Shown piece after piece: positions 8,353 to 39,143 of a DNA stretch of 64,000 bases. A model generated the notes under the pieces. The model saw only the letters and a list, made by a program, of their open reading frames with translations. It had not been told where the DNA came from and did not search any database. Positions within the stretch are counted from its first letter, which is position 1. Every line of letters starts with the position of its first letter. Origin of the DNA: Anaerolineales bacterium (GTDB lineage Bacteria; Chloroflexota; Anaerolineae; Anaerolineales; Villigracilaceae); contig CP129482.1 of the NCBI GenBank assembly GCA_030583925.1, positions 2,356,001-2,420,000 on the forward strand, in the 5' to 3' direction. The translations under genes were made by a program, and so were the position numbers.

Positions 8353-9378
8353 TTATGGCACAATCACCGAACGGATTCCTTCGCCTTTGCGCAGCGTATC
8401 GAACGCGGCGTTGACGTCGTCCAGCGGGAACTGCGCGGTGACGAGCTCCTTCACTTTGATTTTTCCTTGTCTTGCCAATTCCAACACGCGCGGATAATCC
8501 ACGGCGCGGCAGCCGAGCGAGCCGACGATCTCCAACTCGCGGTACATCACGCGTCCAATGTCGAGGGTCATCGCTTTGTCGGAATAGCCGACAGCCACGA
8601 ATCGCCCGCCCGCGCGCAGACAGGCAAACGTCTGGGCTTGAGTCGTCGGATTGCCGATCGCCTCAAAGCCGATGTCCGCGCCTCCGCCGCCCGTCAGTTT
8701 GCGGATTTCCTTATCCACGCGCTCGACATTCTGCGCGTTGACCGTCGCCTGCGCGCCGAGTTTCTTCGCCCATTCCAGTTTTGAAGCGACGATGTCCACC
8801 GCGATGACTTTCGCGCCGACCGCCGCCGCGACCTGCACGAGATTCAAACCGATGCCGCCACAGCCGACGACGACCACGTTATCGCCTGGCTTCACCCCTC
8901 CGCGATTGACAACGGCGTGATACGGCGTTGTGACCGCGTCCGCGATGATCGAACTCTCGACGAGCGGAAGTTCGTCGGGCAGGGCGATCACATCCTTGGC
9001 GGGCGCGAGCATGTATTCGGCATAACCGCCGTCCACGTTGTTGCCGAACATCACCATCTTTTCGCAGATGTTCTCGCGTCCCGTGCGGCACATGGCGCAT
9101 TGACCGCACCCATACACCGCGGGGAGCAGGACGCGCGCGCCTTCCTTCCATTGAGTTACGCCCGCGCCCAATCCCGCGACCGTGCCTGAGACTTCGTGTC
9201 CCAGCACGAGCGGCGGCTTCTTGAACGTGGGAACGCCGTGATCAATGTAATGCAGGTCGGTGTGACAGACTCCGCATCCCGCGACATTGATCAACACTTC
9301 GCCCGCGGACGGAGTCGGGGTCGGGATTTCTTCGACGCGCAACGGTTGGTTCGGTTCGTGAAATACAGCCGCTTTCAT
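8353..9378 (-). CDS. had: 6-hydroxycyclohex-1-ene-1-carbonyl-CoA dehydrogenase-like zinc alcohol dehydrogenase
   Basis: A 341-residue medium-chain dehydrogenase. GCGVCHTD and LGHEVSG provide catalytic zinc ligands, [15 protein letters not shown] provides the four structural-zinc cysteines, and [15 protein letters not shown] is the NAD-binding fold. The family is broad. The assignment to Had (BzdX in Azoarcus) rests on co-location with oah, dch and benzoyl-CoA reductase, where this step oxidises the hydroxyl formed by Dch. Its ATG overlaps the thioesterase stop by four bases. Another alcohol dehydrogenase is possible on sequence alone, but the operon makes Had the best call. Confidence 0.8.
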
Positions 9379-9794
9379 CCTTGTTTCTCCAATGCCTGAC
9401 GAAACGATTCGGGGACGCGCGTCTTTTGAAGCGATTTGCGGTCCGCCGTCACAACCGTGATCTCGCCTTTCGCCGTCAGGCGGTTTTCCTTTGATTCGTT
9501 GAAGACCTGAAAATCGAACCGCGCGCTCGACCTGCCGACCTTGCCCGCGCGGCAGTGAATCCGCAGGAGGTCGTCGAAGTATGCGGGCGCATGGTACGAA
9601 GCGTGCGCGTCCACGTAGAGCATGTCAAAGTCCTCTTTCAGCATCCGCGTATAACTGAAACCGATCGCGCGCAGGTATTCGATCAGCGCAACGTCGAAGA
9701 GATTGAGGTACTGCGCGAAGTTGACGTGTCCCTGCGCGTCGGTCTCGTTGAAACGCACCTTGAGCGTGGTTGAAAATGGATAAGGTTCGGTCAT
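9375..9794 (-). CDS. Acyl-CoA thioesterase, 4-hydroxybenzoyl-CoA thioesterase family
   Basis: A 139-residue single hotdog-fold protein. [19 protein letters not shown] (from about residue 16) carries the catalytic aspartate and the GHVN(x)xY pattern of the 4HBT/YbgC family. Coupled to had by a four-base overlap. Such enzymes hydrolyse stalled acyl-CoAs and release CoA. Thioesterases in benzoate operons are thought to relieve CoA trapping, so that is the likely role here. Confidence 0.82.
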
Positions 9795-14351: not shown

Positions 14352-15185
14352 TTACGCGGACCCTACCACCTCGTCCACAAATTGATTAGCGGGGGATTCG
14401 AGAATGCCGCGATACTCTTCGAATAATTGCCGCGCTTTGAAACCGACCCAATCGGGGGGAAGCAGAGCGGCGGGCAGGTTCGGGTCGGTGCGCGGAAAGA
14501 ACTGATAATGATGCAACAGCCAGAAGCGGCGGACGAAACTTTCGTCCAAGTCTGGAGGGCGGCGTCCGTTATTTTTGGCGGCGAGATATTCTTTCTCGAA
14601 TTTGGCGATAAATTTTTTATATTGCGAGGCAAGCGCCGACAAATTCCAGCAACGGCGGACAAGTTCTTGATCTTCGGAGGGTCCTATGTGGATGCCGGAA
14701 AAAATCTCGACGTGATCTTGCATATTCAATTCGTTGCACAAGGCGAGGATTTCGGTCTTGCGGTTATGGGGCGAGATCCACATGTTCGGCGCGAGTTGAC
14801 CGAAACCGAACCACGGTAGGCGCGTACGGAAAGCGTGGCGCAGACTGCGCTTCTTCTCCGGCAGGGAGAAAACGACGATCTGCCACATCCCATCCCATTC
14901 GGCGAGCGGCGGCTCGAAGATGCGTTTGCCGCCTTGCGAAAGTAACGACCAGCCGCGCGGCGTGAGCGAATATTGGCTACGCCTCCCCTCTTTGCGCGTG
15001 GCGAGCCAGCCCTTGCGCGACATGCGCGAGAGCGCGAGTCGCGCGGCGCGTTCGCCCACATCGAGTCGGTCGAGGAGGGCGAGCAGGCTTCCTGTCCAGA
15101 TGGAACCGCCGCGCGGGAGGATGAATTCGCCGAAGAGGGTGAAGATCAGAAATTGAGTTCGAACGGATGGGGTAGTTGGGGACAT
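14352..15185 (-). CDS. PaaX-family transcriptional regulator
   Basis: This 277-residue protein has an N-terminal winged helix (LFGEFILPRGGSIWTGSLLALLDRLDVGERAARLALSRM region, about 17-55) and the PaaX middle and C-terminal pattern (WDGMWQIVVFSLPEKKRSLRH and LVRRCWNLSALA). In phenylacetate degradation PaaX represses its operon until an aryl-CoA is bound. Here it is embedded between the benzoyl-CoA reductase genes and oah in the same orientation, so it is a likely self-regulated aryl-CoA-responsive repressor. The paired half-sites at 19461-19507 and 39071-39111 are its best candidate operators, which is an inference. The 104-base spacer after it holds a repeat with AGGACATGTT and AACATGTCCT. 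Confidence 0.85.
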   Translation of the reverse strand: MSPTTPSVRTQFLIFTLFGEFILPRGGSIWTGSLLALLDRLDVGERAARLALSRMSRKGWLATRKEGRRSQYSLTPRGWSLLSQGGKRIFEPPLAEWDGMWQIVVFSLPEKKRSLRHAFRTRLPWFGFGQLAPNMWISPHNRKTEILALCNELNMQDHVEIFSGIHIGPSEDQELVRRCWNLSALASQYKKFIAKFEKEYLAAKNNGRRPPDLDESFVRRFWLLHHYQFFPRTDPNLPAALLPPDWVGFKARQLFEEYRGILESPANQFVDEVVGSA

Positions 15186-15215
15186 GGCAGCGGGTTTCCT
15201 AAACTCTTATGAAAT

Positions 15216-15235
15216 CGCAGGCTTAAGCGCCTGCG
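15216..15235 (-). other. Short GC-rich hairpin at the end of bzdQ
   Basis: CGCAGGC and GCCTGCG form a 7-bp stem at the bzdQ stop. There is no U-run after it, so it is more likely an attenuator or mRNA stabiliser than a strong terminator. Confidence 0.4.
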
Positions 15236-16050
15236 ACTGTCTGTTGCCCTTCACGTTGAAGTTTTTCAAAACGACGCCGTCCGAGGATCGCTGCGCCGAG
15301 GGCGGTGACATATTGAACCAGATCGCCCTCCGCCACGTTGACGTCCGTTTTGATCTGTTCGCGCACAACATGGCTCATGGATTCAAAACGCAAAATGCCG
15401 CCGATGAGCGTGAACTCGGGATTCATACCCACGCGTTTGAGGAGTTGCACCGAGCGCGCCACCAGCGAAACGATAGAGCCGTACATGATGTCCGACGGCG
15501 ACATGCCTTGCGAGAGGTGGTTGATGACCTCCGATTCGGCGAAGACCGCGCAGACGCCGGAGATGGGGACTGCCGTTTTGGAAACCGCCGCGAGCGCGCC
15601 GATCTCTTCGATCTTGTAGCCCATGTAACGCGCGGTCTTTTCGAGGAAGGCGCCCGTGCCCGCCGCGCATTTGTCGTTGAGACGGAAGGATTTGACCTTG
15701 CCTTCCTCCGTGAGTTGGATGGCTTTCATCGTCTGCCCGCCGACATCGAGGATGGTGCGGGTCTTGGGGAAGAGGAACGCCGCGCCACGTGCGCTGGCGT
15801 TGATGTCGGTCACGTTCACGTCGCGGAAGCCAACCAGATGACGACCGAAGCCAGTGGTGACGAGGTAGGATGAATCGGCTTCATTCAGTCCCGCGAGTTC
15901 AAGCGCGTTGTTGTATGCCTTGCGCGCGGCTTCTTCGAGACGGAAGCCCGTGTTGACCATGGCACGCGCGACGATCTCATTGTCGTCGCCTAAAATGACT
16001 GCTTTGGTGTAGGTGGAGCCGACGTCAATGCCGGTGGTGTAAGCGCTCAT
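15223..16050 (-). CDS. bzdQ: Benzoyl-CoA reductase ATPase subunit, BzdQ-like
   Basis: A 275-residue BadF/BadG/BcrA/BcrD ATPase. [13 protein letters not shown] opens the ASKHA nucleotide fold. NDKCAAGTG (C128) and [12 protein letters not shown] (C167) carry the two cysteines which, paired with those of the partner ATPase, hold the [4Fe-4S] cluster that passes energised electrons to the reductase subunits. The second phosphate motif reads [10 protein letters not shown] instead of the usual DxGGQDTK. Both ATPase subunits are short, as in the Azoarcus Bzd enzyme and unlike Thauera BcrA, and the order N-O-P-Q is the same as in bzd. The start overlaps the bzdP stop by four bases. P and Q are named by order only. 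Confidence 0.87.
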
Positions 16051-16862
16051 GCGGTCTCCTTTTCTTCGACAGGGACGCGTCCCGCCAGGATGTGATCGAG
16101 CGCGAAGAGCGCCGCGCCCAACGCGCCCATATAATGCGAATCTTCGCTGACGTTCAGCTTGGTCTTCAACGCGCCTTCGAGGGCTTTGATCATCCCTGCG
16201 TTGCGCGTGACACCGCCGGTGAAGGTGACTTCATCTTCGATGCCCACGCGTCTGAGCAACGCGGTCGAACGGGAGGCGATGGAAAGATGCACGCCCCACA
16301 AAATATCTTCGATCTTTTTGCCTTTGCCCAGCCACGACAGCACTTCGGATTCGGCGAAGACCGTGCAAGTGGTGCTAATCTTGACCGGTCTTTCGGCTTT
16401 CATCGCCACGTTGCCCAGATCGCCCAGCGGAATATCCAACGCCGCGGCCGCCGCGCCGAGGAAACGCCCGGTTCCCGCCGCGCATTTATCGTTCATGCAG
16501 AAGTCGAGCACTTCGCCCTTTGGGCTGACGCGGATGGCTTTGGTGTCCTGCCCGCCCATATCCAGCACAGTCTTTGTGCCGGGGAACATCTGCGCCGCGC
16601 CGCGTGCGTGACAGGAGATCTCCGTCACCTGCGTGTTGCCGAACGTGACGCGGTAACGACCATAGCCGGTGCCGATCACATATTCAACTTCCTCTTCGCG
16701 GATGCCGCTGGTCTTGAGCGCTTCGGCGAAGGCGTTCTCCGCCGCGAGAACGACGTTCGCGCCGGTGTCGATCAGCGCGCGTCCGACGATCTCCCTTGTT
16801 TCATTGACGATGACCGCTTTGGTTTGCGTCGAGCCTACGTCAACGCCTGCCGCGTATGCCAT
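16047..16862 (-). CDS. bzdP: Benzoyl-CoA reductase ATPase subunit, BzdP-like
   Basis: A 271-residue ASKHA ATPase starting [13 protein letters not shown]. It has the full [10 protein letters not shown] motif, NDKCAAGTG (C127) and [12 protein letters not shown] (C166). It should hydrolyse ATP with BzdQ and pass electrons from reduced ferredoxin to the BzdNO catalytic pair for two-electron reduction of the aromatic ring. Activators of 2-hydroxyacyl-CoA dehydratases are related but work as homodimers. Two different adjacent ATPase genes point to a benzoyl-CoA reductase-type heterodimer. Confidence 0.88.
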
Positions 16863-16884
16863 ATATGCCTCCAGTTGTCAGTTT

Positions 16885-16960
16885 GTCATTGCGAGACGAT
16901 ATTCTTCCGTCGAAGCAATCTCCAGCTTGTTACGAGAAGACTGCTTCGCTCGCAGCGACA
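16885..16960. repeat. Palindromic intergenic repeat (GTCATTGCGAG family)
   Basis: GTCATTGCGAGACG at the left and CGCTCGCAGCGAC at the right frame GAAGCAATCTC and AGACTGCTTCG. It lies between bzdO and bzdP. Confidence 0.8.
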
Positions 16961-16963
16961 CAT

Positions 16964-18259
16964 TTATGAACTTATCTTTGCCATCTCGCGCCGCGACGCC
17001 AGCCCTTCGAAGAAAGCGTCGGCGCGGTTCTTCATCTGCGCTTCGGAAACGACGCGCTTGTCCATCATGTCCGATTCGATGAACAGGCTGGGCACATCGG
17101 TCGCCGCCATCATCGCCCGCCGCCCGTCGGCGAGACCCGTCGAAACCGTGCGGCACGATTTGATCGGGTGATAGACCACGCCGTCCAGGTCGTAATTCTT
17201 CACCCAGTCAATCACGACGCGGTCCTGGTGGAACATGTTGTCCATCGCCTCGCGCACGCTGATCAGGAATCCCTCCGCCAAACTTTCGATGGGACGGTTC
17301 ACGTCGTATTCGTAGCCCATACTGCCGCCGCCGGAAGCGAAGTTCAAATATGTGGAATGGACGAAGTTGCCGCCCCACTCCGTGAACATCTCGCTGAAGC
17401 GGCGGAAGATCGGGTAGCACGGCACGCCGACGAAGCCGAGACGGTATTTCTCCACGATCTGCGTGCCGATGCCGTGCGCGGCTTTGTATTCCATCTCTTC
17501 CACAAGGTTCTTGAAGAACGTACTGCCCTTTTCGGTGCCGCGCAAATTGTTCGAGACGCCGAGGTAGACCGTGCCGTCCGTCACCGCGTTGAAGAGGGAT
17601 GGCTTGCTCTTGTTCAACTCCAGCACGCGCTTCCAGCCGGTGTTCATGTCGTTGGCATACTTCAATGTTTCGCGCAGGCGGTCAATGTCGAATTTTTTAC
17701 CGGAGACCTTTTCGCAAAGCGGAATCAATTCACGGATCTGCGCCTCGACGTATTTGCGGTCGCGCTCGAAATCGGCGCTGCCCGGCTGGAACTGTCCGCC
17801 CGCCTGCCGCGTGGCTGGCACGTCGATGACGAATAGAGGCGTGCCATACATCCGCTCCCAGATCTCCGCCCATTTAATGTAGGTGTTGCAGGCGTTGGTC
17901 ATCACCGCGATCGCGGGCTTGGGAATCCTGCCCATCGGGTGATCGCCGCCGCGCAATTGCACAGCCATATCCGCTTTGACGTAGCCGCAGATATCGGGCG
18001 AGTAGCCGTAATCTTCGGCTTCGGCGAGATATTTATCCGCCACGCGCCGCACGGCAGTTTGAAGCGAGGTGATCTCCGGCAGTACCAGCGGAAAATCGAA
18101 CACATGCAACAACTCCGCCATACTGCCCATCACGAAGACATACGCCGCGCCTTCGCCTCGTTTGGCATGTTCCGCCAAACCATCGAACCACTCGCGGAAA
18201 AGATCCGCCCCTTCCTTGTTGCCGCGTCCTACGAATTCATCTGCTGTTATTTCGGTCAT
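16964..18259 (-). CDS. bzdO: Benzoyl-CoA reductase catalytic subunit, BzdO-like
   Basis: This 431-residue protein is of the 2-hydroxyglutaryl-CoA dehydratase D-component/benzoyl-CoA reductase family. Likely cluster-ligand cysteines are in SPDICGYVK, MTNACNTYIKW, VGVPCYPIF and HPIKSCRTVS. The length matches BzdO/BcrB. Together with BzdN it binds the aryl-CoA and iron-sulfur clusters and reduces the ring at very low potential. Nine bases separate it from bzdN. A 2-hydroxyacyl-CoA dehydratase cannot be excluded from the family alone, but oah, dch and had in the same operon strongly favour benzoyl-CoA or 2-aminobenzoyl-CoA. Confidence 0.88.
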   Translation of the reverse strand: MTEITADEFVGRGNKEGADLFREWFDGLAEHAKRGEGAAYVFVMGSMAELLHVFDFPLVLPEITSLQTAVRRVADKYLAEAEDYGYSPDICGYVKADMAVQLRGGDHPMGRIPKPAIAVMTNACNTYIKWAEIWERMYGTPLFVIDVPATRQAGGQFQPGSADFERDRKYVEAQIRELIPLCEKVSGKKFDIDRLRETLKYANDMNTGWKRVLELNKSKPSLFNAVTDGTVYLGVSNNLRGTEKGSTFFKNLVEEMEYKAAHGIGTQIVEKYRLGFVGVPCYPIFRRFSEMFTEWGGNFVHSTYLNFASGGGSMGYEYDVNRPIESLAEGFLISVREAMDNMFHQDRVVIDWVKNYDLDGVVYHPIKSCRTVSTGLADGRRAMMAATDVPSLFIESDMMDKRVVSEAQMKNRADAFFEGLASRREMAKISS

Positions 18260-18267
18260 GGGTCACC

Positions 18268-19434
18268 TCAACTAAAGATCAAATTCTCCGTGAAGGTTTC
18301 CAACTGGATTTCCATGCTGTCGAAGGAAGTCATGTTCTCTTCGAACTCACCCACAAAATACGGGATGCCCTTTTCGTCGAGCGCTTTGGTGTACGTCACC
18401 TGGTCTTCAAGTCCAGGCTCGCACATCTTCGCGGCGGTGATGATCGCCGCCTCCGCGCCTGAGTCCGCGATGCGCTGTAACAGCATCTTCTCCTTCGGCT
18501 TGCGCGCGTCGTGCTGAACGGGGCTGTAACTCGATTTTTCCAAATACGCGTCCGCCATGTTCATCAACAGATCGCCCTCCAGCGGAACATCTTCGAGAAT
18601 CCAGCGCAAGCCGATGAGCAGGTCATCGTCCACGATGTAGCAGGATTGGGAGATCGCGCGGATCAGATCAAGCGGAGGCTGTTCGCAGAATCCACCCTCG
18701 AAGACGACCCGAATCTTATCCTGACGTTTGGCTGGTCGCGCTTCGATCAGCGGAATCGCCGTTTTGAGCAGTTCGTTGTGCTCCTCGCGCAGAATCATCC
18801 CGCCGACAGTCATCAGCAGATACGCCTCGAAACCCGTGACGAGCCAGGGCTGTTTGCGTTTGATCTCGTACAACTGACGCAACAGGCGGCGGTTTTCGTT
18901 GTACACGATGAGGGAGTTTCTCAACGCCTCATCCGTGACCTTGGTCCCCGTCACCGCTTCGATGTCGCCCTTCACCCGTTCATACTCGCCGCACAGATAT
19001 TCCGCCGAGGCTTTCGAGTTCGCGTTTTGCGGCAGGTACAAAATCTGGCACGGATACGAATAGTTGCGCCCCCAGACCGCCGCTAAATTCCGCGCCGCGT
19101 CGCAGATGGGATGGGTGACGAACATATCCAATTCGACGCGGTTGCTGAGGACGAGTTCGAGCGAGGTTTTGAGGATCGAGCAAAGATAGGAGCCGAAGCG
19201 TGAGTCGGAGTGTGTCGGCTCGACGGGCGCGCCGCGCATCTTGAGCGGCAACATCCCCGCCGCGTGGGCGATCTCTTCGGGAAAGTACACTTGGAAATGC
19301 CCCAGCACCTTGCCCCCGTTTTCGCGCCAGCGTTTCACTGTCGGGAAGTCGGCGTTCTCCGCCAGTTCGCGGCACTCCGCGAAGATCCCCTCCAACGACT
19401 GGTTCTGCCATGTTCCGAATAGGTGGTTGGTCAT
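18268..19434 (-). CDS. bzdN: Benzoyl-CoA reductase catalytic subunit, BzdN-like
   Basis: This 388-residue partner of BzdO belongs to the same HgdB/BcrC family. Cysteines appear in GSYLCSILKTS, THPICDAARN and SYPCQILYLPQ. It is the first gene of the operon, with a GGAGG ribosome site, and its promoter and operator lie 30-100 bases upstream. The N-terminal stretch QSLEGIFAECRELAENADFP reappears, decayed, in the remnant at 38750-39028. Length fits BzdN (about 380). Order and sizes point to the Azoarcus (Bzd) class of ATP-dependent benzoyl-CoA reductase. The dedicated ferredoxin gene usually found nearby is not seen in this window. Confidence 0.87.
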   Translation of the reverse strand: MTNHLFGTWQNQSLEGIFAECRELAENADFPTVKRWRENGGKVLGHFQVYFPEEIAHAAGMLPLKMRGAPVEPTHSDSRFGSYLCSILKTSLELVLSNRVELDMFVTHPICDAARNLAAVWGRNYSYPCQILYLPQNANSKASAEYLCGEYERVKGDIEAVTGTKVTDEALRNSLIVYNENRRLLRQLYEIKRKQPWLVTGFEAYLLMTVGGMILREEHNELLKTAIPLIEARPAKRQDKIRVVFEGGFCEQPPLDLIRAISQSCYIVDDDLLIGLRWILEDVPLEGDLLMNMADAYLEKSSYSPVQHDARKPKEKMLLQRIADSGAEAAIITAAKMCEPGLEDQVTYTKALDEKGIPYFVGEFEENMTSFDSMEIQLETFTENLIFS

Positions 19435-19460: not shown

Positions 19461-19507
19461 AATATATCTCATTATTTCAACACATCGTAACGAAAGTGAG
19501 ATATATT
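19461..19507 (-). promoter_or_regulatory. Operator-like inverted repeat of the benzoyl-CoA operon
   Basis: Two perfect 11-bp arms, AATATATCTCA (19461-19471) and TGAGATATATT (19497-19507), lie immediately downstream of the -10 box and cover the expected start of transcription. The cores TCTCA and TGAGA are exactly 30 bp apart, about three helical turns. An identical geometry occurs at 39071-39111. The position suits repression; the PaaX-like protein is the candidate binder by inference. Confidence 0.75.
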
Positions 19508-34363: not shown

Positions 34364-36255
34364 GGAACCATCTCCGCAAGTTTGGGCACGATGAAGCCTT
34401 TGTAGCAGGCGTCAATGCATTGACCGCAGTCTATGCAGAGTTTGTAGTCAATGTCCACGTGACTGCCATCGGCGCGCAGGACGAGCGCAGGACATTCGAA
34501 GGCTTCGGTGCAGAAGCGGCAACCGTCGCATTCGTCCGTGACGACGACGGGGATTGGATGCTCAAGGATGGGATCGTTATCGTACAAAACGCACGGTCGG
34601 TCGGCGATGATGACCGCCACGCCGCCGTCCGCGGCTTGCGTGTGAGCCTGCGCTTCGTTCAGGATCGCGGTGAAATCCTCCTGCTCGTACGGGTCGGTCA
34701 CTTTGACATATTCGACTCCGCAAGCGCGGACGAGATCGGGGATGGAAACTTTGCGCGGCGCTTCCGAACCGTCTGCCAGATAATCGTTGGCGGGCGTCGG
34801 CTGAAAACCGGTCATCGCGGTAGTGTGGTTGTCGAGGATCAACAAGACAAAGCGCGCGCCGGTGTGGACGGCGTTGATCAACGGCGGAATGCCCGAATGC
34901 AGGAAAGTCGAATCGCCGATGGTGGCGATGACGGCACGGTCGTCGCCGACGAGCCGGTTGGCTTGGAAGAATCCGTTCGCCATGGTGATCGAAGCGCCCA
35001 TGTCCACGAAGGTATCCACAGCACGCAGGTTCGTTCCCAGTGTGTAACAGCCGATGTCGCCAGGGTAAATGGCGCGCGGACCGAAATTCTGTTTCATGGC
35101 GTAGAACGCGGAACGATGTGAACAGCCCGGGCACAAACGCGGTCGCCGCGCCGGCAGGGACAGTTTTTTGATCGCCGCGCTCAAGTCCGCATCTTCGGGC
35201 GAGGGGTTCACTTGAATCCCCACCCCCGATAACGATTTGCTCAACACGGAGAACATCACTTCGGGGGTCAATTCACCGGAGTTGGGCACACTGCCGTCGA
35301 GCCGTCCGCGGACGCGTTGTCGATTCGGGATTTGAAGTTCGATGCACGTGTCCGGTTCCTCGAGGACGATCACGGTCGTGAAGCGGGCGGAGAAGGCTTC
35401 GATCAAATTTACGGGCAGAGGATAGGGCGTGCCGATCTTCAACATCGGGACGCGGACGCCCAGTTCGAGCAGGGCTTGCCGCGCCGTGTGGAACGCGACG
35501 CCGGAGGCGATGATGCCCACCTCGCCGCCGTGGTCTTCGTTCACGATGTAGTTGTATTTCGAGTTGGCAAACTCGGCGGCAATCTCGATCAATTTTTGAT
35601 TGAGTTCCGTGTGGAGTTTGTAGCGCAGTTTCGGCGTGGCGGTCCAGTGGGCTGGGTCCTTTTGGAATTTTGGCGAAACAGGCTTCCCGTCGGAAGAAGA
35701 AGCGGGAGCGTCGGCGCTGGGGCTGACGGCGTGACAGAGGCGCGTCGTGGGACGCAGGATGACGGGAATCTTGAACCGTTCCGAAAGGGCGAACGCGTCG
35801 GCGATCATCTCCCGCGCTTCGGCTGGAGTGGACGGGTCGAATACGGGGACTTTGGCGGTGAGCGCTAGCAGGCGCGAATCCTGTTCGGTTTGGGAGGAGT
35901 GCGGTCCCGGGTCGTCGGCGGGGATGACGATAAACCCGCCCTTGACGCCGGTGTACGCGGCGCTAAAAAGCGGGTCGGAGGCGACGTTCAAGCCCACCTG
36001 TTTCATCGCCACAGCAGCGCGCAGTCCGGTCCACGCGGCGGCGAGCGCGACCTCGAACGCCACCTTTTCATTGACCGACCATTCGGCGTAGAGGTCTTTG
36101 TCGAGCGCTTTTTTATATTTGATGATTCCCGCCAGAATTTCAGAGCTTGGCGTGCCGGGGTAGGCGGTCGCCACGCGGCAACCCTGTTCCACAAGCCCTA
36201 ATGCGATTGCGTCGTTACCGGTTAAGAGTTGAGTACTCATGGGCGTTTCACTCAT
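34360..36255 (-). CDS. iorA: Indolepyruvate:ferredoxin oxidoreductase alpha subunit, second copy
   Basis: About 631 residues; the start is uncertain among ATGs at 36264, 36255 and 36240, and 36255 is chosen because it overlaps the upstream stop. ATAYPGTPSSEIL, RLCPGCSHRSAF, GDIGCYTLGT and GDSTFLHSGIPPLINAV mark the IorA thiamine-diphosphate enzyme. The C-terminal ferredoxin domain carries CDGCRFC and CIDCGQCIDAC. It is longer than the copy at 5.4-7.2 kb, mostly from an extra loop near residues 175-190. Position between the serine kinase-like gene and the hydroxylase genes fits tryptophan or indole catabolism. Confidence 0.9.
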   Translation of the reverse strand: MSETPMSTQLLTGNDAIALGLVEQGCRVATAYPGTPSSEILAGIIKYKKALDKDLYAEWSVNEKVAFEVALAAAWTGLRAAVAMKQVGLNVASDPLFSAAYTGVKGGFIVIPADDPGPHSSQTEQDSRLLALTAKVPVFDPSTPAEAREMIADAFALSERFKIPVILRPTTRLCHAVSPSADAPASSSDGKPVSPKFQKDPAHWTATPKLRYKLHTELNQKLIEIAAEFANSKYNYIVNEDHGGEVGIIASGVAFHTARQALLELGVRVPMLKIGTPYPLPVNLIEAFSARFTTVIVLEEPDTCIELQIPNRQRVRGRLDGSVPNSGELTPEVMFSVLSKSLSGVGIQVNPSPEDADLSAAIKKLSLPARRPRLCPGCSHRSAFYAMKQNFGPRAIYPGDIGCYTLGTNLRAVDTFVDMGASITMANGFFQANRLVGDDRAVIATIGDSTFLHSGIPPLINAVHTGARFVLLILDNHTTAMTGFQPTPANDYLADGSEAPRKVSIPDLVRACGVEYVKVTDPYEQEDFTAILNEAQAHTQAADGGVAVIIADRPCVLYDNDPILEHPIPVVVTDECDGCRFCTEAFECPALVLRADGSHVDIDYKLCIDCGQCIDACYKGFIVPKLAEMVP

Positions 36256-37081
36256 CAAAGACAAAGACCGGTTCCTGATATAACCGGATCTTGTTCGCCT
36301 TCAGCCGCTGGCGGACGTTTTCATCCAGCCATGCGTTCTTTTCCTCCAGCGGCGCAGAATCTTTGAATTTTTCCAACGGAACGTTGACCCCCAATGCGCG
36401 CCCGGGGATGAGATGCCGAGTCACCCCCATCGGAATTTTGCTCCCGTTGAGGGCGATCTCGACCACATCCGTCGGCGTGTACACGGGAAAGGCGATGACC
36501 GCCGAGAAGCCGGGATATTCCTTGAGAAGCGGCGGAATGTTGACGCTTGCCGTGCGATGAACCTCCGCTTTCCCCCGATAGACAGAAACCAACTGGCAAA
36601 GCAAATCCGCTTTGTTGCAAATATCGCCTTCACACAAGACCGCGAACTGCGAACCGTTGCGCATGATGATGCACGCCTCGATGTCACGGTCGTTCAAACG
36701 CTGGAGGGCGGTTGTGTCGTCCATCCGTTGCAGGGTGAACTTTTCGATGTCCGCAATATCCGCCAATAATTTATCGGGCGGCAAACCAACGATCACATGG
36801 TTCCAAACGCTGAGATCCACCGTCTCCCGGTCGTAATCCACGATCTGAACAAGGATGTCGCGGAAGCCCATGGACGCGAACGCCGAGACGCGCGTCGCCC
36901 CGTCCAGCACGATGTATTTGGATCGGAACTCTGTCACGATCGGGGGGTTGCGCAGGAACCCGTCGCGCGTGAGAGAAATCTCGATCCGCTTCACACGGTT
37001 GGGATCGTCTTCCTCGTGTAATAGCAATTTCTCGAGCGGCACAAAACGCAGGCGGATTTCAGACGGTTCGAGGGTACGCAT
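36248..37081 (-). CDS. ParB/sulfiredoxin-fold free serine kinase-like protein (SerK/SbnI type)
   Basis: A 277-residue protein with a ParB/Srx-like N-terminal domain. LLLHEEDDPNR (19-29) and VLDGATRVSAF (58-68) match the pattern of SerK and SbnI, which phosphorylate free L-serine; the glutamate after LH is catalytic in those proteins. SVWNHVI corresponds to a conserved W-x-H. There is no helix-turn-helix DNA-binding region as in chromosome-partitioning ParB. It lies directly after trpB2. Since some TrpB2 enzymes use O-phosphoserine, the pair suggests serine phosphorylation followed by condensation with indole. This is an inference from family and neighbourhood. Confidence 0.7.
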   Translation of the reverse strand: MRTLEPSEIRLRFVPLEKLLLHEEDDPNRVKRIEISLTRDGFLRNPPIVTEFRSKYIVLDGATRVSAFASMGFRDILVQIVDYDRETVDLSVWNHVIVGLPPDKLLADIADIEKFTLQRMDDTTALQRLNDRDIEACIIMRNGSQFAVLCEGDICNKADLLCQLVSVYRGKAEVHRTASVNIPPLLKEYPGFSAVIAFPVYTPTDVVEIALNGSKIPMGVTRHLIPGRALGVNVPLEKFKDSAPLEEKNAWLDENVRQRLKANKIRLYQEPVFVFDE

Positions 37082-37114
37082 GGAACGCCAATCCTCATTA
37101 CTTTGATTCCTGAA

Positions 37115-37152
37115 TGTTCATTCCTCCAGCGCAAGGGCTGGAGGAATGAACA
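37115..37152 (-). other. Strong intercistronic hairpin between trpB2 and the serine kinase-like gene
   Basis: TGTTCATTCCTCCAGC and GCTGGAGGAATGAACA form a perfect 16-bp stem with a six-base loop. No U-tract follows on the minus strand. The right arm holds GGAGGAATG, a ribosome-site-plus-ATG that opens only a seven-codon frame. Confidence 0.8.
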
Positions 37153-37166
37153 AGGGCTATCCTCTG

Positions 37167-38549
37167 TTACAGAGCAACTTGCGGCAACTCCTTCATGGAT
37201 TCGGCAACCTTTTCGGCAGGATACTCGAAGCGCTGGAGGTTTCCTTTAATATATTCATCGTACGCGCCCAAATCGAATAGTCCGTGACCTGAAAGATTGA
37301 AGGCGATCACCTTCTTGACGCCTTCCTCTTTGCATTTGACCGCCTCGTTGATCGCGGCGCGAATAGCATGAGACGATTCAGGCGCCGGGATGATTCCCTC
37401 CGCCTTGGCGAACATCGCCGCCCCCTCGAAGGTATCCAGTTGATCCAAGGCGACCGCTTGAATGTGTCCACTGTCCACCAGCGCCGAAACATGAGGCGCC
37501 ATACCGTGATAGCGCAAGCCTCCGGCATGAATCCCCTCTGGGACGAAGTTGTGTCCGAGCGTGTGCATCTTGACGATGGGCGCCATCCGCGCAGTATCGC
37601 CATAGTCGAAGGCATACGTCCCTTTGGTGAGAGTCGGGCAAGCAGTCGGCTCAACGGCGATGACTTTGGTCTTCTGTCCTTCAGTAAGGTTCTTGTGGAT
37701 GAAGGGGAAAGCAAATCCGGCAAAGTTGCTCCCGCCGCCAACGCAACCGATGACCATGTCCGGGTATTCCCCCGCCATGTCGAATTGCTTGATGGCTTCC
37801 AAGCCGATAACGGTTTGGTGCATGAGCACCGGGCCAAGCACGGAGCCGAGGGAGTATTTATATTTGCCGTTGGAGGTAACCGCCGCTTCCACTGCCTCTG
37901 AAATCGCAATTCCCAGCGAGCCGAGGCTATCGGGGTTCTCGGCTAACACTTTCTGCCCATATTGGGTTTTATTCGAAGGGCTGGGGGTGACGGTCGCGCC
38001 AAAATTCTCCATGACAATGCGGCGATACGGCTTCTGGTTGTAAGAAATCTTCACCATGTACACATGGCATTCCAAACCGAAGAAGTTGCACGCCATAGAC
38101 ATCGCCGATCCCCACTGACCGGCGCCGGTCTCAGTAGTAAAGCCTTTGACGCCTTCCTCTTTCGCGTAAAATGCCTGCGCGATGGCTGTGTTCGGCTTGT
38201 GCGAGCCGACAGGCGAAACCCCTTCATATTTGTAGTAAATGTGGGCTGGCGTGTCGAGCGCCTTCTCCAATCGCCTGGCGCGATAAAGAGGCGACGGACG
38301 CCAAAGCCTGTAGATTTCACGAACCGGCTCGGGGATTTCGATCCAGCGATCCATGCTCACGGCTTCCATGATAAATTTCATTGGAAACAGGACTGCTAGA
38401 AAATCAGGCGTCACCGGCTCCTGAGTGCCGGGATGCAAGACCGCGTTCCACGCGGTCTTGGCGGGGTCAACCGGCATGTCCGGATTGATGTTGTACCAAG
38501 CCTTTGGCATATCGGCTTCGGTTAGTACATATTTATATTGATCGCTCAT
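37167..38549 (-). CDS. trpB: Tryptophan synthase beta chain-like protein, TrpB2 type
   Basis: A 460-residue fold-type II PLP enzyme. VGSHKPNTA carries the Schiff-base lysine (K118), [12 protein letters not shown] the catalytic glutamate (E140), and [12 protein letters not shown] the phosphate-binding glycine loop. The length and the long N-terminal extension are those of TrpB2, which works without TrpA on free indole. No trpA is nearby and the neighbours are catabolic, so the gene may capture indole as tryptophan for breakdown. It is the first intact gene after the 39.1 kb promoter. Confidence 0.87.
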
Positions 38550-38749
38550 GGCTGCTCCTCACTTTGTTGAATTTGAATGTTACGTACGTGATTTTTCGGT
38601 TCATTTATCATCCATAACGCTTCTCCTGTCTGCTTTCAAGAGGCATTTTCAACAACCACGTTGCAGTAAGGTTTGGGTAATGGGCAAAGGATTCGATCGA
38701 GCATCCAGCGGCGAGCGGCTGGACACGAGCGAAACGCGGCTTCAGAGAA

Positions 38750-39028
38750 TCACGCTGCTCTTGCCCTGACTGGCAAACAACAATCTGCCCGACTCCAAAA
38801 TGAAGCCTGTAATTTATTAAAATTATGGATAAGCGATCTGGATATTGACGGCTGACTCAAAACGCTTCCCGCCGCGCGGACGGTTGCTTCTGAAATGGGA
38901 ACTTGTATCCCTGCCTTGCCCCAACGTTTGGCCCATGGAAAATCAGTGTGTCCAGCCAATTCCCTATATTTCGCGATGACACCTTGCACTGATTGATCCC
39001 GCCGCTTATCGCACGAACATAAAGCCAT
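38750..39028 (-). pseudogene. Decayed N-terminal remnant of a bzdN-like gene
   Basis: The start has GGGAGG before ATG and then QSVQGVIAKYRELAGHTDFP-AKRW, which matches BzdN QSLEGIFAECRELAENADFP-VKRW at 14 of 25 aligned positions, and a shortened stretch ending in AAGSVL where BzdN has AAGMLP. After about 60 residues similarity ends, and the frame stops at residue 92, while BzdN has 388. Its upstream region has the same promoter and operator as bzdN. It is best read as the remnant of a duplicated reductase subunit gene. A functional short leader peptide is less likely. Confidence 0.7.
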
Positions 39029-39070
39029 GCAGAACCTCCCGAAGCGACCAAATTTCATCGTCTCAAAAAT

Positions 39071-39111
39071 ATATCTCACTTTTGTTTCAGTCCGTTATTG
39101 AAGTGAGATAT
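39071..39111 (-). promoter_or_regulatory. Operator-like inverted repeat of the indole operon
   Basis: ATATCTCACTT (39071-39081) and AAGTGAGATAT (39101-39111) are perfect 11-bp arms. The TCTCA and TGAGA cores are 30 bp apart and 12 bp from the -10 box, exactly as at 19461-19507, although the sequence between the arms differs. Confidence 0.78.
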
Positions 39112-39115
39112 GTTG

Positions 39116-39143
39116 AGTATAATGTATTCTTAGGATTTGTCAA
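39116..39143 (-). promoter_or_regulatory. Sigma70-type promoter of the indole operon
   Basis: On the minus strand TTGACA (39143-39138) and TATACT (39121-39116) are separated by 16 bases, as in the promoter at 19509-19536. It reads toward the bzdN remnant and trpB2. Confidence 0.75.

What the first reader, a model, noticed from the sequence alone, without database searches (positions are those of the whole stretch)
38750..39028. Decayed bzdN copy under the second promoter
The first about 60 codons after the second operator resemble the N-terminus of BzdN (for example RELA, DFP and KRW in register), including the ribosome site position, then similarity stops. It shows how the indole operon may have acquired its promoter: by duplication of the start of the benzoyl-CoA reductase operon, followed by loss of the structural gene. 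The roughly 560-base leader could still matter for regulation.
Basis: seen in the sequence. Interest (0 to 1): 0.65.

Follow-up and report, generated by a model that had tools for sequence, protein, structure and literature searches.

The report
Captured promoter with decayed reductase-gene start
In a Chloroflexota bacterium and eight related genomes, a 19-kb operon that looks like an indole-degradation operon starts behind a copied promoter that still carries a crumbling piece of the benzoyl-CoA-reductase-like gene it came from, so the act of borrowing a promoter is still visible, and the crumbled piece seems to be kept readable by ribosomes.

Summary
Behind the second of only two copies of the operator in the 3.97-Mb genome, the minus-strand leader of the trpB2 operon contains promoter, operator, ribosome site, start codon and about 62 codons homologous to the reductase gene at 18268-19434 (BLASTP E=1e-9; DNA score above all 1000 shuffles). 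That gene is closer to BcrC than to BzdN. The same relic, decayed to different degrees, stands before trpB2 in eight related genomes; the least decayed (G114) covers about 120 codons. No genome examined has an intact gene in this spot, but two other families have an intact reductase cassette just upstream of trpB2. Codon-position counts show drift without coding constraint, so it is a pseudogene fragment. A simple local duplication of the present operon is not supported: window-type relics group with bcrC of another genus (AU p=0.013-0.016 against the neighbouring gene's clade). Unexpectedly, ribosome site and start codon stay nearly invariant in 8 of 9 leaders and the frame stays free of stops (0 seen, 6-10 expected) although the peptide drifts. 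Most likely a promoter-capture scar whose leader is still translated for its own sake, perhaps to avoid polarity over the long operon. No expression data exist.

The parts
39116..39143 (-). sigma-70-type promoter: TTGACA (39143-39138), 16-nt spacer, TATACT (39121-39116)
   Evidence: 11 of 12 consensus; -35 to -10 block 24 of 33 columns invariant in six genomes
39071..39111 (-). operator: ATATCTCACTT-N19-AAGTGAGATAT; covers the expected transcription start and the first bases of the transcript
   Evidence: only two such sites in the 3.97-Mb genome; both 10-nt arms invariant in six leaders while 5 of 21 spacer columns are
39026..39039 (-). ribosome binding site GGAGGTTCTGC and ATG, inherited from the reductase gene
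   Evidence: 12 of 14 columns invariant in eight leaders, 0 of 15 just upstream, 22 of 111 downstream in the seven alignable ones
38750..39028 (-). leader ORF, 92 aa; first about 62 codons (39028 to about 38861) are the bcrC relic, with an in-frame 18-nt deletion after codon 41; the rest has no match
38601..38615 (-). mini-ORF ATGGATGATAAATGA (MDDK stop) with AGGAG (38627-38623), 66 nt before trpB2
   Evidence: ribosome site plus ATGGAT present before trpB2 in all nine relic-bearing genomes
37167..38549 (-). trpB2 (TrpB-like PLP enzyme), first full gene behind the captured promoter
   Evidence: TIGR01415, PRK12391 above cut-off
18268..19434 (-). intact bcrC-like reductase subunit gene, the paralogue to which the relic is compared
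19464..19504 (-). first operator, at the bcrC promoter
14352..15185 (-). PaaX-like regulator gene, candidate repressor for both operators (inferred)
   Evidence: TIGR02277, 233 bits, cut-off 264.55; for presence across genomes

Best explanation
The trpB2 operon is transcribed from a promoter-operator that arrived as a copy of the 5' end of a bcrC-like gene (promoter, operator, ribosome site and at least about 120 codons). The rest of that gene was lost or never copied and the remainder decays differently in each species. Shown by sequence: homology, shared promoter and operator, presence in nine genomes, loss of coding constraint, relationship to bcrC of another genus. Inferred: one repressor (probably the PaaX-like protein) acts on both operators, so that the upper pathway and the reductase are induced together; and the relic ORF is still translated, not for its peptide but because ribosomes on the leader prevent polarity (for example Rho-dependent termination) over a 500-nt leader ahead of about 19 kb of operon.
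For: Relic. Same relic before trpB2 in G017, G013, G012, G001, G110, G114, G392, G394. G114 leader: 79% over 341 nt to G104 bcrC, E=2e-82. Only two operators in the genome; in 200 relatives the promoter-operator lay before bcrC or trpB2, with scattered unrelated chance-like hits. Relic-relic differences are spread over codon positions (15,11,15; 10,6,8) whereas bcrC-bcrC are not (2,2,13). Relics fall with g9-type bcrC; placing them outside all f1 bcrC is rejected, p=0.001-0.007. Ribosome site and start kept (Fisher p=2e-6); zero in-frame stops in codons 2-41 of six relics, 6.1-9.7 expected, P at most about 0.01 for three roots and three branch scalings; the other two frames hold 7 and 6 stops.
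Against: G394 has lost ribosome site and start codon. The stop-codon and ribosome-site tests were devised after seeing the data, rest on short sequences and on estimated branch lengths. No transcript, repressor binding or translation data. trpB2 of the window and of G114 differ more at four-fold sites (K=1.17) than their relics do (0.44), so a single old capture inherited with trpB2 and neutral since then does not fit well; monophyly of all relics is also rejected (p=0.0125 and 0.0325). How the copy crossed between genera is unknown.
Confidence: 0.72

Rival explanations
1. Deletion scar: an intact reductase cassette once stood directly upstream of trpB2 and was deleted from bcrC codon about 120 to just before trpB2, while another cassette copy took its present place downstream.
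For: In G121 and G184 (other families) an intact cassette bcrC-bcrB-activase-activase lies just upstream of trpB2, with 544 nt between or with paaX in between. The relic belongs to another bcrC lineage than the present gene, as expected of an older resident cassette.
Against: No trace of bcrB, the activases or paaX in any leader, only bcrC 5' sequence. In those families the gene b13209 precedes bcrC, so the promoter order differs.
Confidence: 0.3
2. Repeated copying: gene conversion between the bcrC promoter region and the trpB2 leader (about 19 kb apart, same direction) refreshes promoter, operator and the first codons, so relics in different lineages have different ages.
For: Monophyly of relics rejected (p=0.0125, 0.0325); in G114 codons 2-41 look coding-like against b_G115 (2,1,11 differences) while codons 61-100 do not (11,7,11 of 40 each); G392 and G394 relics are nearest to each other and to bcrC of G394.
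Against: In the window and G017 the relic is not closest to the genome's own bcrC. Short alignments and unequal decay can mislead the tests.
Confidence: 0.3
3. The leader ORF encodes a functional small protein or regulatory peptide.
For: Ribosome site, start and open frame are retained.
Against: Peptides of 58-101 aa share almost nothing beyond the relic; changes are even over codon positions, also between close relatives (G012-G013 10,6,8); frames shift; absent in G394.
Confidence: 0.04
4. The relic is neutral debris; retention of ribosome site and open frame is luck or recency.
For: G394 lost the start; G110 and G394 have shortened leaders; tests are post hoc.
Against: Fisher p=2e-6 for the ribosome site; P at most about 0.01 for openness.
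Confidence: 0.3

Closest known systems
Promoter capture in the Cit+ Escherichia coli line (rnk-citG duplication; PMC5918244)
   Same: A downstream gene comes under a borrowed promoter, and a truncated ORF from the donor gene stays between promoter and gene (there a truncated rnk-citG fusion ORF before citT).
   Different: Here the event is old and natural, the donor is a catabolic gene of the same predicted pathway so the operator came along, and decay can be followed across nine species.
iaa operon for anaerobic indoleacetate degradation, Aromatoleum aromaticum (PMC8360864)
   Same: Likely shared pathway logic: CoA transferase, mutase, acyl-CoA dehydrogenase, feeding benzoyl-CoA-type reduction.
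   Different: The window operon starts with trpB2 and indolepyruvate oxidoreductase genes and shares its promoter with a reductase operon; no biochemical evidence here.
Benzoyl-CoA reductase BcrC/BzdN subunit family
   Same: The relic is its N-terminus.
   Different: Relic lacks all codons past about 62 (window) and cannot be an enzyme.

Membership tests
bcrC-type benzoyl-CoA reductase subunit (source gene 18268-19434) | NCBIfam equivalog TIGR02263 above curated cut-off | tested here: not met
   267.2 bits against 421.15; best of all models but below cut-off
bzdN-type subunit (source gene) | NCBIfam equivalog TIGR03190 above curated cut-off | tested here: not met
   110.3 bits against 453.8
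pseudogene fragment of bcrC | homology beyond chance to an intact gene | tested here: met
pseudogene fragment of bcrC | truncation or frameshifts | tested here: met
   ends at codon about 62 here; frameshifts in G114 and G017
pseudogene fragment of bcrC | no protein-level constraint | tested here: met
   even codon-position differences; dN/dS about 0.4-1.2 against about 0.1-0.2 in bcrC where dS is finite
promoter capture by copying a gene's 5' end | promoter, operator and ribosome site homologous to those of the donor gene | tested here: met
promoter capture by copying a gene's 5' end | captured promoter drives the downstream operon | not testable with these tools
   needs RNA data
PaaX regulon | PaaX-like protein binds the operator | not testable with these tools
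   paaX lies in the cluster and is present in nine relatives with the operator, absent from G001 (relic and variant operator) and G137

The most novel reading that the evidence does not exclude
A pseudogene start has become a translation-dependent, sequence-independent leader: selection keeps the ribosome site, the start codon and absence of stops, but no peptide, so that ribosomes protect the start of a long operon; and the two promoters of the pathway are kept alike by gene conversion.
Probability: 0.3. Interest if true: 0.65.

Novelty: new member of a known kind. Interest (0 to 1): 0.42.

Why it matters
It is a natural series of promoter capture, frozen at nine stages of decay, with donor gene, operator and recipient operon all identifiable. 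It shows how two operons of one predicted pathway can come under one operator, and it makes testable whether a dead reading frame can be kept open only because its translation shields a long transcript.

Tried and rejected
1) Local duplication of the present bcrC start: disfavoured (AU p=0.013-0.016; 0.054 in the smaller set). 2) Relic older than all f1 bcrC: rejected (p=0.001-0.007). 3) Conserved small protein: rejected by codon-position counts. 4) Attenuator in the leader: terminator-like hairpins before T runs occur 150-185 nt before trpB2 in G013, G012, G110 and weakly G017, but none was found in the window by the terminator scan, and shuffles give similar numbers overall. 5) Relic in G137 (another family, same promoter type): a match to the ribosome-site region was no better than many shuffles (22 of 500 or worse); inconclusive. 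6) Remnants of bcrB, activases or paaX in the leaders: none. 7) First operator pattern had the wrong spacing and found nothing, corrected.

Full report
Setting. The window lies in a 3.97-Mb, single-contig genome whose closest relatives carry Anaerolineales (Chloroflexota) names. On the minus strand an operon runs from trpB2 (37167-38549) through an SbnI/SerK-like gene, indolepyruvate oxidoreductase subunits, a three-subunit molybdenum hydroxylase, an aminotransferase, a CoA transferase, an acyl-CoA dehydrogenase, a mutase and hydantoinase-like subunits to a reductase operon bcrC-bcrB-activase-activase-paaX (14352-19434). The set resembles a pathway from indole through indoleacetyl-CoA to benzoyl-CoA-type reduction, like the iaa operon of Aromatoleum; this is inference from gene content.

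Observation. The leader of trpB2 holds TTGACA-16-TATACT, an operator with perfect arms, GGAGG and ATG, then codons that match bcrC. Protein: 41% over 51 aa, E=1e-9. DNA: score above all 1000 dinucleotide shuffles. Homology ends near codon 62, after an in-frame 18-nt deletion. Only two such operators exist in the genome, one per operon.

Relatives. The same promoter, operator and relic stand before trpB2 in G017, G013, G012, G001 (same genus), G110, G114, G392 and G394 (genus g9). Decay differs: G114 keeps about 120 codons with frameshifts, G017 about 60, the window about 62, G012, G013 and G001 about 41, G392 about 45, G394 codons 8 to about 46 without ribosome site or start, G110 only traces. 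What lies upstream of the promoter differs between the genomes inspected. G001 has the relic but no detectable bcrC and no paaX (draft genome). No genome examined has an intact reductase gene between this promoter and trpB2, but G121 and G184 have an intact cassette just upstream of trpB2. G226 and G137, in other families, have a similar promoter before both bcrC and trpB2, with no demonstrable relic, so the sharing of this promoter type may be older than the relics seen here.

Descent. The window relic is 66-71% identical to bcrC of G115, G104 and G394 but 55-57% to its own bcrC. AU tests reject trees with the g1 relics inside the g1-type bcrC clade (p=0.013, 0.016; 0.054 in the smaller set) and with relics outside all bcrC of family f1 (p=0.001-0.007), and accept relics among g9-type bcrC; monophyly of all relics is rejected too (p=0.0125, 0.0325). 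The promoter and ribosome-site details agree with the g9 type (TTGACAAATC, GGAGGTTCTGC, about 114 nt from -35 to start), though some may be ancestral states. Hence the source was a relative of the g9-type gene, either an older cassette that once stood here or one acquired from another genus, and copying may have happened more than once.

Coding or not. Between relics, differences are even over codon positions (window-G017 15,11,15; G013-G012 10,6,8), unlike intact bcrC (G104-G115 2,2,13). The peptide is therefore not conserved. Yet GGAGGTTCTGC-ATG is nearly invariant (12 of 14 columns in eight genomes) between variable flanks (0 of 15 upstream, 22 of 111 downstream in the seven alignable leaders; Fisher p=2e-6). 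In six relics codons 2-41 contain no in-frame stop; simulation of neutral decay expects 6.1-9.7 in total and gives all six open with P from below 0.001 to 0.011 depending on root and branch scaling; the other frames contain 7 and 6 stops. The ORFs are 58-101 aa and always end before trpB2. These tests were made after seeing the data.

Mechanism. Shown: copied promoter, operator and 5' gene piece, then decay. Inferred: the shared operator puts both operons under one repressor, plausibly the PaaX-like protein of the cluster; the operator covers the start of the transcript, which fits repression. Inferred with less confidence: translation of the leader is selected because a long untranslated leader would expose the operon to polarity; G394 seems to have solved this by shortening the leader (353 nt from -35 to trpB2 against 599 in the window). 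The nearest documented parallel is the rnk-citG duplication in E. coli, where a truncated fusion ORF lies between captured promoter and citT.

Verdict. Known kind of event, unusually well documented by relatives, with one open and testable twist.

Noticed in passing
38601-38627 (-): A mini-ORF (MDDK stop; MDEQ, MDYMDK, MDDIDK in relatives; 15 codons in G392) with its own ribosome site sits 66 nt before trpB2 in all nine relic-bearing genomes; G226 and G121 also have a ribosome site with a very short ORF there, and other families a ribosome-site-like motif without a start.
   Followed up: partly
36248-38549 (-): trpB2 is next to an SbnI/SerK-like gene (possible serine kinase); with O-phosphoserine this could make tryptophan from indole as the entry step of indole degradation.
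   Followed up: no
L070/L071 (G017) against window 14352-38549: Between window and G017 most of the operon (sbnI to act2) is 96-99% identical in protein, apart from iorB 86% and xdhC 87%, but trpB2 is 93% and paaX 85%, and the leader strongly diverged: a mosaic suggesting recombination within the operon.
   Followed up: no
L059 about 8840-9470, L060 about 9084-9628, L085, L086, L087, L089, L080: In other families a conserved small ORF of about 100 codons (ending ...CADCRLVICRQFVTLYTR...) lies just before trpB2, usually after paaX.
   Followed up: no
L078 (G115), L088 (G183), L137, L138, L139: Other trpB2 copies have T-box-like leaders (GGGTGGCACCACGG followed by a terminator), apparently biosynthetic.
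   Followed up: no
L066 (G104), L067 (G115): bcrC follows a leader-like promoter directly, without hyuB or the trpB2 operon upstream; could be the product of recombination between the two direct copies of the promoter region.
   Followed up: no
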